Positions 45,888-50,744 of a stretch of 64,000 nt of DNA are shown one piece after another; the first letter of the stretch is position 1; each line of letters starts with the position of its first letter. Both the position numbers and the translations under genes were made by a program. The notes beneath the pieces were generated by a model. The model saw only the letters and a program-made list of their open reading frames with translations, was not told the origin of the DNA and did no database searches. The stretch comes from Chloroflexota bacterium (GTDB taxonomy: Bacteria; Chloroflexota; Dormibacteria; Dormibacterales; Dormibacteraceae), in the NCBI GenBank assembly GCA_005881275.1, contig VBEF01000042.1, positions 1 through 64,000 on the forward strand, read 5' to 3'.

Positions 45888-47179
45888 TCACGACCAAGAG
45901 TCCGCGCGAGCGGGCGTTTCTCGTCGGGATCCTGCTGCCCGGCACGCCTCCCGAGACGGTTCGCGACCAGATGACCGAGCTGGCCGACCTTGCTCGCACC
46001 GCCGGCGCCGAGGTCGTCGGGTCGGACGTGCAGCGCCGCTCCGAGGTCGACCCCGCGCACTTCATCGGCATGGGCAAGGTCGAGTCCATGCGCGACATGA
46101 AGCTCGAGGGCGGCTTCGACCTGATCATATGCAACGACGATCTCAGCCCGCGCCAGCAGCGAAATCTGGAGCTGCAGGTCAAGGCGCGGGTGCTCGACCG
46201 GACGGAGATCATCCTCGAGATCTTTGCCCAGCACGCGCGCACCCATGAAGGCCGGCTCCAGGTCGAGGCTGCTCGCCTGCACCACCTGCTGCCGCGCCTG
46301 ATCGGCGCATACGCGTACGACCGGCAGGTCGGTGGCCGGCGGGGGGGAGTGGGGGCCCGCGGCGGTTTCGGCGAGCAGCAGATCGAGGTCGAACGGCGCC
46401 GGATTCGCAAACGCATCCGCGACCTCGACCGCGAGATCGAGCAGGTGCGCACCCAGCGCCACCAGCAGCGCACCGGTCGCAGGCGCGCCGAGCTGGACAC
46501 TGCGGCGATCGTCGGCTACACGAACGCGGGTAAGTCGACGCTGCTCAACGCCTTGACGGGGGCGGGCGTGCGCGCTGAGCAGAAATTGTTTGCGACGCTC
46601 GACCCGACAACGCGAAAGCTGGAGCTGCCGGCAGGTCGCGAGTTCCTTCTGACCGACACAGTTGGTTTCATCCAGAAGCTGCCGACCGATCTGGTCGCAG
46701 CGTTCCGCGCCACGCTCGAGGAGGTCACGGAGGCAGATCTGATCCTCCAGGTCCTCGACCTCAGCTCTCCGGCGGTGGAGGAGCAGGCTCAGACCGTGGA
46801 GGAGGTGTTGACGGACCTGGGCGCCGCAGACAAGCCGCGCGTCGTCGTGCTGAACAAGGTCGACCTGCTCGGCCCGGCAAGCCGGCGTCGAGCCATCGCC
46901 GCGCTGTCCGATCGCTATCCCGGCGCGGTCGCCATCTCGGCCACCAACCGGGCCGGGCTCAAGGAGCTGCTGGGTGCGCTTGACCAGGCCAGCCGGGGCG
47001 ACTCAGTGCCGCTCGAGATTCTGGTTCCGTACGGGCGGGAGGGCGTGCTGGCCGAGCTACGCAAGGTGGGCGGGGTGGAGCGGACCGAATATGTCGAGGG
47101 CGGCACCAAGGCCTGGGGTTGGGCGCCCCGCCATGCCGCCCGAAGATTCGAGAACTTCGCGGCTAACGGAAGAGCCTGA
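45884..47179 (+). CDS. hflX: GTPase HflX; apparent CTG start overlapping upstream TGA
   Basis: ERAFLVGILLPG..., VGYTNAGKSTLLNALTG. Confidence 0.92.
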   Translation: MITTKSPRERAFLVGILLPGTPPETVRDQMTELADLARTAGAEVVGSDVQRRSEVDPAHFIGMGKVESMRDMKLEGGFDLIICNDDLSPRQQRNLELQVKARVLDRTEIILEIFAQHARTHEGRLQVEAARLHHLLPRLIGAYAYDRQVGGRRGGVGARGGFGEQQIEVERRRIRKRIRDLDREIEQVRTQRHQQRTGRRRAELDTAAIVGYTNAGKSTLLNALTGAGVRAEQKLFATLDPTTRKLELPAGREFLLTDTVGFIQKLPTDLVAAFRATLEEVTEADLILQVLDLSSPAVEEQAQTVEEVLTDLGAADKPRVVVLNKVDLLGPASRRRAIAALSDRYPGAVAISATNRAGLKELLGALDQASRGDSVPLEILVPYGREGVLAELRKVGGVERTEYVEGGTKAWGWAPRHAARRFENFAANGRA

Positions 47180-47789
47180 TCACACCTCGGACCACGCCGA
47201 CAAGGCTCACGTTGTTGCTCACGATCGGCTGGTAGGCCGGATTCTCGGCGATCAGCTTGACGCGGCCGTCGCTGCGCTCGAACCGCTTCACCGTGGCCTC
47301 GCCTTCGACCAGCGCCACCACGATCGAGCCGTTGCTCGCCTCCTGCTGCGGCCGGATGAGGACCAGGTCGCCCTCGAGGATGCCCGCGTTGATCATGCTG
47401 TCGCCGCGCACGCGGAGCATGAAGTACCCGTCCTTGGCCAGATCGGAAGAGAGCAGGACGTGGTCTTCGATGTTCTGTTCGGCCAGGATCGGCGAGCCGG
47501 CCGCCACGTGGCCCACGATGGGCACCGAGACGGCGTTCCGGCGCTGCTGGTCGACCTCCGCGTCCTGGACCAGCTGCACGGTCCGGGATTTGCTCGGGTC
47601 GCGCTTGATCAGGCCGCGGCGCTCCAGCTGGTTGAGGTGGTTGTGGACGGTCGAGCTGGAGCTCAGGCCAACCGCCTCCCCGATCTCCCGGACGCTGGGC
47701 GGGTAGTTGCGGACCTTGGTCACGTACCTGATGTAGTCGAGGATCTTGTTCTGGCGTTCAGTCAGTTGGTCGGTCAATTTTGTATTCAT
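47163..47789 (-). CDS. lexA: LexA repressor
   Basis: N-terminal wHTH, GHVAAGSPILAEQN, MLRVRGDSMINAGILEGD. Confidence 0.97.
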   Translation of the reverse strand: MNTKLTDQLTERQNKILDYIRYVTKVRNYPPSVREIGEAVGLSSSSTVHNHLNQLERRGLIKRDPSKSRTVQLVQDAEVDQQRRNAVSVPIVGHVAAGSPILAEQNIEDHVLLSSDLAKDGYFMLRVRGDSMINAGILEGDLVLIRPQQEASNGSIVVALVEGEATVKRFERSDGRVKLIAENPAYQPIVSNNVSLVGVVRGVIRLFR

Positions 47790-47819
47790 CTCCAGTTCGT
47801 GATGAGGGACGCTGAGGCC

Positions 47820-47859
47820 ATGCTAGCACTTCGAGCCGCCGGCCGCAAACCTTTGTTCG
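47820..47859 (-). promoter_or_regulatory. Candidate lexA promoter (TTGCGG-17-TAGCAT on minus strand) with LexA-like box CGAACAAAGGTTTG (47846-47859)
   Basis: Direct reading of the minus strand; box overlaps the -35. Confidence 0.55.
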
Positions 47860-47864
47860 TCATC

Positions 47865-47893
47865 TTGACAGGCAAACGCGCGTTCGCTATCCT
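47865..47893 (+). promoter_or_regulatory. Promoter TTGACA-17-TATCCT with LexA box CAAACGCGCGTTCG (47873-47886); a further near-match CAAACGTATGTACG at 47896-47909
   Basis: Direct reading; same geometry as recA. Confidence 0.8.
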
Positions 47894-47902
47894 GCCAAAC
47901 GT

Positions 47903-48214
47903 ATGTACGCCGCTAGGCCCGGAATCAAACCTTGGCGGGCAAACCGTGCCGGCGGCAACGGCTCATGGCGGCGGCTGCTGGCGGCAGTCGCCGCTGTGGC
48001 TGCGCTCAGCATCGCGTTCTCCCTGGGCGCCCGGGGCGGCGGGGACACGCACTACACGACGGTCGAGGTGGAGCCAGGCGACACGCTGTGGTCGATCGCC
48101 TCGGCGCACTATCCGGCGGATGATGTGCGGGTCCGTGTCGATGACATCGAGCAGGCCAACGGGCTGTCGGGGCCGGCGATCCAGGTGGGGCAGAGCCTGC
48201 GCCTGCCGGCTTAG
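47903..48214 (+). CDS. TM + LysM domain protein, YneA/Rv2719c-like candidate SOS division inhibitor
   Basis: One TM then TTVEVEPGDTLWSIASAHYP...IQVGQSLRLPA; divergent from lexA. Confidence 0.8.
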   Translation: MYAARPGIKPWRANRAGGNGSWRRLLAAVAAVAALSIAFSLGARGGGDTHYTTVEVEPGDTLWSIASAHYPADDVRVRVDDIEQANGLSGPAIQVGQSLRLPA

Positions 48215-48340
48215 CCGGCCACCCTCCCCGGGCTTGACAGCCCTTGCTGGGGGTGCTGGAGCCGAGGACTGCTGCAAAAAGGACCTATCCCACCTGTTCG
48301 AAAGGCCCCAAACCGCACAGTCGTCGACCGCGGTGGACGC

Positions 48341-48568
48341 GTGAGGCTGGTCCTGGTCACCCGGCTGGGCTGCCACCTCTGCGACCAGGCGCTGAGCCTC
48401 CTCCGGTCCCTCGGTCATGAGCCCGAGCTGGTCGATGTCGACGCCGACGACCGCCTGCACGACCTCTATGACTGGCGCGTGCCGGTGGTGCTTGTCGATG
48501 ACCGCGTCGTCGCCGAGGGCCGGATCACCCTCGAACAGCTGTCTAGAGCGGTGGGCAAGGGAGTCTGA
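48341..48568 (+). CDS. Glutaredoxin family protein
   Basis: LVTRLGCHLCDQALSLLR, WRVPVVLVDD. Confidence 0.8.
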   Translation: MRLVLVTRLGCHLCDQALSLLRSLGHEPELVDVDADDRLHDLYDWRVPVVLVDDRVVAEGRITLEQLSRAVGKGV

Positions 48569-48621
48569 GCGAGGGCCAGCTACCCGTGAGTATGCTTGCG
48601 GTAATAGTCCTTTAAAATAGC

Positions 48622-49143
48622 CTAAGCTCCGGATAACCTGAGCCTATGGATCTTTCGGGACGAGTGCATCGCCTTCCGAACGAAGTCATCTGAACCGCGG
48701 TGATTCAGTTCTCGCTGTTTCCAGTAGAGGGCTTCCTGTACGTCAAGCCAGGCCTTCGGGAGCGTCTGCCGACCTAACGTCCGGCGGCTCCTTCGCGAAA
48801 GCTCGATCATCGCAAGAGCGTTATCGCACTGAGGGATCTTGAGTCGCAGATACGGGCGGATCCCGGTCAAGAATGGTCGGGCACTTTGGCCTGTTTGAGT
48901 CCGCCAGTTCCAAGCCTGGCGAGCTTTCAGTCCGCGAAGCGGCGAAGATGCTGAGACGATCCATCCGCCCCAATTGATCTGCATCCAGTCCAGAACACCG
49001 CGATCACGATTGCTCACGACGATATGGACGCTGTAATAGAACCGACCGCGTCTGGGCTTGAATGAGCGAGCAATCGCGATGCAGCCTTCGCCGTCGACAA
49101 AGCCGGCCGCGTAGGCCCAGTCCGTGTCTTTGATCTCGGTCAT
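48622..49143 (-). CDS. LAGLIDADG family protein (single-motif, homing-endonuclease-like)
   Basis: WAYAAGFVDGEGCIAIAR motif; 173 aa; starts 2 nt after upstream stop. Confidence 0.75.
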   Translation of the reverse strand: MTEIKDTDWAYAAGFVDGEGCIAIARSFKPRRGRFYYSVHIVVSNRDRGVLDWMQINWGGWIVSASSPLRGLKARQAWNWRTQTGQSARPFLTGIRPYLRLKIPQCDNALAMIELSRRSRRTLGRQTLPKAWLDVQEALYWKQRELNHRGSDDFVRKAMHSSRKIHRLRLSGA

Positions 49144-49145
49144 GG

Positions 49146-49511
49146 CTAGGCGGAGCGCTGCAGGGCCGGCTCGGCGTCCAGGCCGCGCAGGAAGACTTCC
49201 AGCGGGAGCGCTGCCGCCTCGAAGTCACCGTGCAGCAGCTCCAGGTCGGCCCCCGCCTGGCCAAGCCCGGCGATGGCCAGGTCGACCCAGCGCAGAGACT
49301 CCTTGACGTAACGGTCCAGGGCCGGGTCCAGCGGTCGCGCCAGGCTTTCCCGGCGCCAGGACTCGCGCAGGTCGTCGGCGAGCTCCTGGAGCCTGTCCAC
49401 GCGCGATCCGGCCTCGCCGCGCTCGAGCGGCTCCGACGCAAGCCGGATCCGGGCCTCCGCGAAGGCGCGGATGAGCCGCCGAAGCTTGACCTGGATTGCC
49501 AGCGTACGCAT
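49146..49511 (-). CDS. 121-aa helical hypothetical protein under LexA-type promoter
   Basis: ORF directly downstream of SOS-type promoter; coupled to LAGLIDADG gene. Confidence 0.65.
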   Translation of the reverse strand: MRTLAIQVKLRRLIRAFAEARIRLASEPLERGEAGSRVDRLQELADDLRESWRRESLARPLDPALDRYVKESLRWVDLAIAGLGQAGADLELLHGDFEAAALPLEVFLRGLDAEPALQRSA

Positions 49512-49523
49512 GTTCGTGATCGC

Positions 49524-49552
49524 ATTGTACCGAACGAGCGTTCGGGCCGCAA
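49524..49552 (-). promoter_or_regulatory. Minus-strand promoter TTGCGG-17-TACAAT with perfect LexA consensus box CGAACGCTCGTTCG (49531-49544)
   Basis: Reverse complement of TTGTACCGAACGAGCGTTCGGGCCGCAA region. Confidence 0.8.
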
Positions 49553-49576
49553 CCCGCGGTTGTTAAGCTCTCGTCG

Positions 49577-50146
49577 GTGCGCCAGCTGCTCCTGACCGCC
49601 GGCCTCCTCCTCCCCCTCGCCCTCGACACCTTCGCGCTCGCCGCCGCCCTGGGCGTGGCCGGCCTCGAGAAGCAAGACCGGCTGCGCGTCGCCCTCGTGT
49701 TCACGGTCTTTGAAGCGGGCATGCCAATCGCCGGCATCCTCGTCGGGCGGATTGCCGGCAACCTGATCGGCGCCTGGGCCGGCTACGGCGGGATCGTGTT
49801 CCTCTTCATCGCAGGGTTCCTCCTCCTTCGGCCGGGCCAGGACGACGCGAAGGAGCAGAAGCGCCTCCGCCTGCTGGCCCATGCCCGCGGCCTGGCCATC
49901 CTCGACCTGGGTCTGAGCATCAGCGTCGACGAGCTGACCGTCGGCTTGAGCGCCGGGCTGCTCGGCCTGCCCATCGCCCTGACCGTGGTCTGGATCGCGA
50001 TCCAGGCGTTCGCCGCGGCCCAGGTCGGGCTCAGGTTTGGCGCCAGGTTGGGCGAGAAGATACGAGAGCGGTCGGAGCAGGTTGCCGGCGTGGCTCTGAT
50101 CGCTGTAGCGCTAGTTCTCCTCGGACTGAAACTCCTGAACATCTAG
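49577..50146 (+). CDS. mntP: Manganese efflux pump MntP family protein
   Basis: LALDTFALAAALG, DLGLSISVDELTVGLSAG; six TMs. Confidence 0.8.
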   Translation: MRQLLLTAGLLLPLALDTFALAAALGVAGLEKQDRLRVALVFTVFEAGMPIAGILVGRIAGNLIGAWAGYGGIVFLFIAGFLLLRPGQDDAKEQKRLRLLAHARGLAILDLGLSISVDELTVGLSAGLLGLPIALTVVWIAIQAFAAAQVGLRFGARLGEKIRERSEQVAGVALIAVALVLLGLKLLNI

Positions 50147-50165
50147 GGAGCAAGATGGCAGATCG

Positions 50166-50744
50166 ATGCCCGTGCTGACGGTCCGATTCCTCGCCATCGC
50201 CGGCGGAGCGGCGTTTGTGTTGGCCGCGCTACAGGTCGCGTGTGGCGCGCCGCCCGAGCACGACATTCACCTGCCGGGGGGCGCTCCCGTGGCGGCTGTG
50301 AGCCTTCCAGTCGGCAGCGGTTTCAACGGAGCGATCACGCCCACTGTCTCGGTAGCGGATGTCCGGTGCCAGATCTATCGCCGGACCGTGTCGCCAACCT
50401 GCCCTGATGACGCGAGCCTTGCAAGGGCCTACTGGCCAGAGCTGCAGCGGACCCGAGATGTCGTGTTTGTGGGCCTACGGACGAGGCCCTCGTGCTTCCA
50501 CATGAATGTCGAATACCTGGCCGAAGAGCACAAGGTGCTCTTTCACTGCCACCACGCGGGTGCTTGGCTTGGCATCAACCCGGTGGTCGGCGCAGCTCAG
50601 CCGGCGGATGTGACGGATGTCGTGATGGCATCGACTCGAGGCATCGCCGCCGGCCGGCTATCGCTCGCGCGAGAGGATCGCATCGAGCACTGGATTATCG
50701 ATCTGACGAGCGAGTCGGGGCTCGGGACCGTGACGATCCCCTGA
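50166..50744 (+). CDS. Hypothetical secreted protein
   Basis: N-terminal signal-like hydrophobic stretch; no recognised domain. Confidence 0.5.
   Translation: MPVLTVRFLAIAGGAAFVLAALQVACGAPPEHDIHLPGGAPVAAVSLPVGSGFNGAITPTVSVADVRCQIYRRTVSPTCPDDASLARAYWPELQRTRDVVFVGLRTRPSCFHMNVEYLAEEHKVLFHCHHAGAWLGINPVVGAAQPADVTDVVMASTRGIAAGRLSLAREDRIEHWIIDLTSESGLGTVTIP

What the first reader, a model, noticed from the sequence alone, without database searches (positions are those of the whole stretch)
48622..49552. SOS-controlled operon: 121-aa unknown protein plus free-standing LAGLIDADG protein
Seen: on the minus strand TTGCGG-CC-CGAACGCTCGTTCG-G-TACAAT lies upstream of ORF 49511-49146. The 14-bp box is a perfect match to CGAACRNRYGTTCG, and the box-to-promoter geometry (2 nt after -35, 1 nt before -10, 17-bp spacer) is identical to recA and the LysM gene in this window. 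The -10 lies 12 nt from the ATG, implying a very short leader. The LAGLIDADG ORF (AAGFVDGEGCIAIA) starts 2 nt after the stop of the first ORF, so the two look translationally coupled. No intron or intein context is visible, and the region looks less GC-rich than its neighbours by eye. Inference: a DNA-damage-induced two-gene unit pairing an unknown helical protein with a putative DNA-binding or nuclease protein.
Basis: partly seen in the sequence, partly recalled or inferred. Interest (0 to 1): 0.8.

Follow-up and report, generated by a model that had tools for sequence, protein, structure and literature searches.

The report
DNA-damage operon carrying a homing endonuclease
In a family of uncultured soil bacteria a small helical protein of unknown function is kept under DNA-damage (LexA) control in every relative checked, and a probably selfish DNA-cutting gene has settled behind it in some of them, so that it would be switched on exactly when the cell's break-repair machinery is; this arrangement appears undescribed.

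Summary
Every sequence detail of the finding is correct. The first ORF ("p121", 121 aa) is a conserved family with a LexA box between its -35 and -10 in 28 of 28 homologues with readable upstream DNA (chance about 2e-5 per locus). It occurs in 36 of 42 genomes of its GTDB family and in none of 68 in three sister families, beside the lexA-lysM-grx block. It is predicted to be a four-helix bundle and resembles nothing known.

The LAGLIDADG ORF is different. It is a free-standing homing endonuclease of the I-CreI/I-MsoI type. It is patchy at one site (8 intact, 3 decayed, 17 empty), AT-richer than its neighbours, and present or absent between near-identical genomes. In sister genomes G011/G013, LAGLIDADG is 64% identical with saturated synonymous sites, while flanking genes are 89-100% identical (Fisher p=3e-11). 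That points to repeated horizontal replacement in place: homing, not a stable two-gene partnership.

Close relatives lie in LexA-regulated surroundings: behind p121; with its own LexA box in G034, inside a 956-bp insertion; or after lysM-NUDIX behind 2-3 boxes in another family. Best reading: a core SOS gene of unknown role plus an SOS-riding homing endonuclease. Expression, cleavage and homing are untested.

The parts
49547..49552 (-). -35 hexamer TTGCGG of the p121 promoter
   Evidence: sequence; TTGC/TTGA-type -35 next to the box in nearly all of 28 homologues
49531..49544 (-). LexA (SOS) box CGAACGCTCGTTCG
   Evidence: conserved in 28/28 homologues
49524..49529 (-). -10 hexamer TACAAT
   Evidence: TATA/TACAAT-like in nearly all homologues
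49503..49516 (-). degenerate second LexA-like site CGAACATGCGTACG overlapping the p121 start codon; CGAAC half-site kept in most homologues
   Evidence: one-mismatch match; alignment of leaders; function inferred only
49146..49511 (-). p121: conserved SOS-regulated four-helix protein of unknown function with conserved C-terminal tail ALQRSA
48622..49143 (-). free-standing I-CreI/I-MsoI-type LAGLIDADG homing endonuclease gene
48588..48608 (-). degenerate copy (around CTATTACCGCAAGCAT) of a conserved element (~ GTCATTATCGNNANCAT) that lies just 3' of the endonuclease gene, or 3' of p121 where the site is empty; coordinates approximate
   Evidence: role unknown
47163..47789 (-). lexA, the presumed repressor; syntenic neighbour in nearly all relatives
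47873..47886 (+). LexA box (1 mismatch) of the lysM gene (47903-48214)

Best explanation
Two things share one LexA-repressed transcript. (1) p121 is a core SOS gene of this bacterial family. LexA sits between -35 and -10 and blocks transcription; after damage RecA-driven LexA cleavage releases it, and a very short-leader mRNA gives a small cytoplasmic four-helix protein, most likely a short-lived damage-checkpoint effector that binds a partner protein (its role is inference). (2) The LAGLIDADG gene is a free-standing homing endonuclease that invades the p121-grx intergenic region by double-strand-break repair, is replaced, decays and is lost. By sitting last in the SOS unit, or in G034 behind its own LexA box, it would be made only when RecA and recombination repair are induced, which both favours homing and limits damage to the host. 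Shown by sequence: conservation of box and p121; presence, absence and decay; allele divergence; fold and conserved residues. Inferred: induction, cleavage, target site, homing, benefit of SOS timing.
For: p121: box between -35 and -10 in 28/28 homologues, chance about 1.8e-5 per locus; present in 36/42 family genomes; synteny with lexA. The box is kept in relatives without the divergent mntP gene, so it belongs to p121. Endonuclease: profile matches I-CreI/I-MsoI chains, natural-length I-CreI E about 1e-8; AF2 model pLDDT 82 matches I-MsoI/I-CreI, Foldseek E about 1e-8; GxxDGEG acid and the lysine aligned with I-CreI K98 are conserved. Mobility: G011/G013 identity falls from about 0.92 to 0.53-0.72 over most of the ORF and recovers after it; synonymous codon changes 49/98 versus 255/1353 in seven flanking genes, p=3e-11; pS 0.66-0.80 for all f1 pairs; GC3 0.63-0.78 in the f1 copies versus 0.82-0.93 in neighbours; G001 occupied versus G009 empty with flanks 86-97% identical; decay in G010, G004, G026; at least 6 changes of the intact state on the tree. 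SOS association: G034 own box about 15 nt before the ATG inside a 956-bp insertion absent from sister G025; family f3 has lysM-NUDIX-LAGLIDADG behind 2-3 boxes in 4 of 11 genomes; none of 14 distant relatives has a box.
Against: Purifying selection on intact copies (dN/dS about 0.06-0.26, from saturated dS) also fits a host-useful gene. The LAGLIDADG tree rejects a G011+G013 clade only marginally (AU p=0.062). In family f3 the copies diverge only slightly more than their flanks, which fits vertical descent with loss. All contexts lie within about 2 kb of lexA, so SOS control could follow from location. No target site was identified and all genomes are MAGs.
Confidence: 0.74

Rival explanations
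1. The LAGLIDADG protein is a domesticated SOS effector (nuclease or DNA-binding regulator) that works with p121, and is lost where not needed.
For: LexA context in close relatives, including an own box in G034; low dN/dS; conserved gene order behind p121.
Against: 17 empty and 3 decayed loci with p121 kept; alleles far older than flanks in sister genomes; foreign composition; nuclease residues retained rather than lost.
Confidence: 0.15
2. It is a homing endonuclease gene whose link with SOS is only positional: its cut site lies in a conserved gene near lexA, as free-standing phage endonucleases cut hundreds of bases away, and LexA control is a by-product. (This is a variant of the best explanation; it overlaps with it in probability.)
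For: All contexts lie within about 2 kb of lexA; distant cut sites are typical of intronless homing (PMC2988022).
Against: G034 carries a perfect box about 15 nt before its own start codon, within the inserted segment, in a genome with only 8 such boxes (1 in the control pattern).
Confidence: 0.3
3. Rapid local evolution or mis-assembly of MAGs, not horizontal replacement, explains the divergent LAGLIDADG alleles.
For: All genomes are metagenome-assembled; G018 holds two variants of the locus.
Against: Synonymous as well as amino-acid sites are saturated while immediate flanks on the same contigs are about 92% identical on both sides; the same site is used in many independent assemblies.
Confidence: 0.05

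Closest known systems
I-CreI / I-MsoI / I-CvuI homodimeric LAGLIDADG homing endonucleases
   Same: Single-motif LAGLIDADG fold, size 150-175 aa, conserved acid and lysine; sequence and fold matches.
   Different: Those are encoded in organellar rRNA group I introns (own knowledge); this one is free-standing between two bacterial genes with no intron RNA found.
Free-standing seg/mob endonucleases of phage T4 (intronless homing)
   Same: Intergenic, often promoter-less endonuclease genes that use a neighbour's promoter; expression timed to repair and recombination was argued for them (PMC2988022).
   Different: GIY-YIG/HNH rather than LAGLIDADG, phage rather than chromosome, phage promoters rather than LexA.
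SOS-controlled mobile elements (integron integrases, ISCR transposase)
   Same: Mobility enzyme placed under LexA control (papers listed, e.g. PMC13393415; titles/abstracts only).
   Different: Integrase/transposase rather than a homing endonuclease riding in a host SOS operon.
Small SOS effectors (YneA LysM protein beside lexA, SulA, SidA; own knowledge)
   Same: p121 is small, LexA-regulated and next to lexA-lysM.
   Different: p121 has no sequence or significant fold relation to anything found.

Membership tests
LexA (SOS) regulon | Specific LexA box overlapping the promoter | tested here: met
   Perfect box between -35 and -10; 28/28 homologues
LexA (SOS) regulon | LexA binding and induction by DNA damage | not testable with these tools
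   Needs EMSA and RNA measurement
LAGLIDADG homing endonuclease (I-CreI type) | LAGLIDADG fold and sequence motif | tested here: met
   Profile search against PDB chains, AF2 plus Foldseek; Pfam PF00961 hit is below its cut-off (17.3 versus 23.1 bits)
LAGLIDADG homing endonuclease (I-CreI type) | Catalytic acidic residue and lysine retained | tested here: met
   E19 nearly invariant, K102 invariant and aligned with I-CreI K98
LAGLIDADG homing endonuclease (I-CreI type) | Site-specific double-strand cleavage | not testable with these tools
   No target site determined
Mobile homing endonuclease gene | Patchy presence at one site with empty and decayed alleles | tested here: met
   8 intact, 3 remnant, 17 empty; at least 6 changes of the intact state
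Mobile homing endonuclease gene | Gene history differs from that of flanking genes | tested here: met
   G011/G013 divergence contrast; tree test marginal, p=0.062; not clear in family f3
Group I/II intron or intein HEG | Located inside a self-splicing intron or intein | tested here: not met
   No intron RNA in Rfam scan; ORF lies between two complete genes

The most novel reading that the evidence does not exclude
A lineage of homing endonucleases that has adopted the host SOS circuit, by riding in LexA-repressed operons or carrying its own LexA box, so that it cuts and homes only while recombination repair is induced, together with a new family of SOS effector (p121).
Probability: 0.45. Interest if true: 0.78.

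Novelty: new variant of a known kind. Interest (0 to 1): 0.6.

Why it matters
It would show how a selfish nuclease gene outside introns and inteins can persist in a bacterial chromosome by timing itself to the repair pathway it needs, an idea argued for phage T4 endonucleases but, in the papers searched, not reported for LexA control. Separately, p121 is a family-wide SOS gene with no known relative, so it is a good entry into the damage response of an uncultured bacterial lineage.

Tried and rejected
Intron context: Rfam scan of 47700-50200 gave nothing real. p121 in known families: Pfam, PHROGs, NCBIfam, PADLOC, PDB sequence and fold searches gave no convincing match. p121 outside the family: none in f2-f4; weak phylum hits (E about 2e-4, inside 509-538-aa open frames) were not pursued. 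Plasmid donors: none. Phage and viral-contig relatives exist (up to about 37% identity over longer matches) but are too distant to be recent donors. The conserved element 3' of the gene was considered as a split homing site and rejected as such, because it is intact in occupied loci.

Full report
What is there. The box CGAACGCTCGTTCG (49544-49531) lies 2 nt after TTGCGG and 1 nt before TACAAT; recA and lysM in the window have the same layout. The palindromic box occurs at three places in the whole 2.94-Mb genome; one of the other two precedes a RecA-like gene, probably imuA, which independently supports its reading as the LexA operator.

Where it comes from. Contigs whose lengths match those of the related genomes carry the titles 'Chloroflexi bacterium' CF_xx and 'Candidatus Dormiibacterota' palsa_842, so the window is from a soil-type Chloroflexota/Dormibacterota-like MAG (inference from names of relatives).

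The 121-aa gene. It is found in 36 of 42 genomes of the same GTDB family and in none of the 68 from three other families of the class. It sits in the block miaA-dapL-hflX-lexA-lysM-grx / p121 / (mntP)-tetR-acyl-CoA dehydrogenase in nearly all relatives where contigs reach; in genus g5 grx lies several kb away. Of 31 copies in the first set of loci, 28 have readable upstream DNA and all 28 have the box between -35 and -10; shuffled upstream DNA gives such a box in 1.8e-5 of cases per locus. The box stays in relatives that lack the divergent mntP gene, so it belongs to p121. AlphaFold2 gives a four-helix bundle (pLDDT 88) with no significant solved relative and no family match. The C-terminal ALQRSA is invariant in the near group and ends in R/K-S/T/P-A in most of the far ones; I suggest, without test, that it is a degradation tag and that p121 is a short-lived checkpoint effector.

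The LAGLIDADG gene. Profile and fold place it with the homodimeric I-CreI/I-MsoI endonucleases. In the near family it occurs between p121 and grx: eight intact (G000, G001, G011, G013, G018, G022, G033 cut by a contig end, G034), three remnants (G010 broken, G004 with an internal deletion, G026) and 17 empty sites. Near-identical genomes differ: G001 is occupied, G009 empty, with flanks 86-97% identical. In the sisters G011 and G013 nucleotide identity is about 0.92 on both sides, but 0.53-0.72 across most of the ORF. Codons that keep the amino acid differ in 49 of 98 positions, against 255 of 1353 in seven flanking genes. pS is 0.66-0.80 for all LAGLIDADG pairs, so these alleles are old and have been brought to one site repeatedly. 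Their GC3 (0.63-0.78 in this family) is below that of neighbours. This matches the gain, decay and loss cycle known for homing endonuclease genes (e.g. PMC4059233, found, of which I saw only the abstract).

The SOS link of the endonuclease. In family f3 a relative (about 37% identical) ends a unit lysM-NUDIX-LAGLIDADG behind two or three LexA boxes about 29 nt apart, in 4 of 11 genomes, with the other 7 lacking it. In G034 the gene is not next to p121: a 956-bp segment absent from sister G025 (flanks 90-91% identical) carries a short ORF, a perfect LexA box, a -10 and the endonuclease ATG about 15 nt after the box. G034 has eight such boxes genome-wide, one in the control pattern. Fourteen distant relatives have no box upstream. 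Thus three different arrangements all place the gene under LexA, but all are near lexA, so they are not fully independent. In G033 and G001 the upstream DNA ends with the contig, so their box was not seen.

Mechanism. Free-standing T4 endonucleases often lack promoters and use upstream ones, and their timing has been argued to match repair and recombination functions (PMC2988022). SOS-controlled mobility enzymes are known for integrons and ISCR elements. The same logic would explain the present case: cut only when RecA is available. No paper in the library combined LAGLIDADG, SOS and DNA-damage-inducible, and none of the 11 with homing endonuclease, SOS response and LexA looked, by title and start of abstract, to be about such a system.

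Limits. All data are sequence; genomes are MAGs; the tree test for G011+G013 is marginal (p=0.062); f3 copies show little excess divergence; the cut site is unknown.

Noticed in passing
window about 48588-48608 (-) and p121-grx intergenic regions of relatives: A conserved short element (about TCTTAAAC.GTCATTATCGNNANCATAA) lies between the convergent p121/LAGLIDADG unit and grx in most family genomes; terminator, recombination site or part of an endonuclease target are open.
   Followed up: partly
window 49503-49516 (-): A second, degenerate LexA-like site overlaps the p121 start codon 28 nt from the main box; the CGAAC half is kept in most homologues. Family f3 has tandem perfect boxes about 29 nt apart between lexA and lysM.
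   Followed up: partly
L158 (G042) downstream of the NUDIX gene: The position used by LAGLIDADG in family f3 holds instead an unrelated gene for a probably secreted protein, so the spot may be an insertion hotspot.
   Followed up: no
L074 1501-1514: Perfect LexA box upstream of a RecA-like (ImuA-type) gene in the same genome.
   Followed up: partly
G018 contigs C222 and C66 (L050, L063): One MAG carries two variants of the locus, one with and one without the endonuclease gene: strain mixture or true polymorphism.
   Followed up: no
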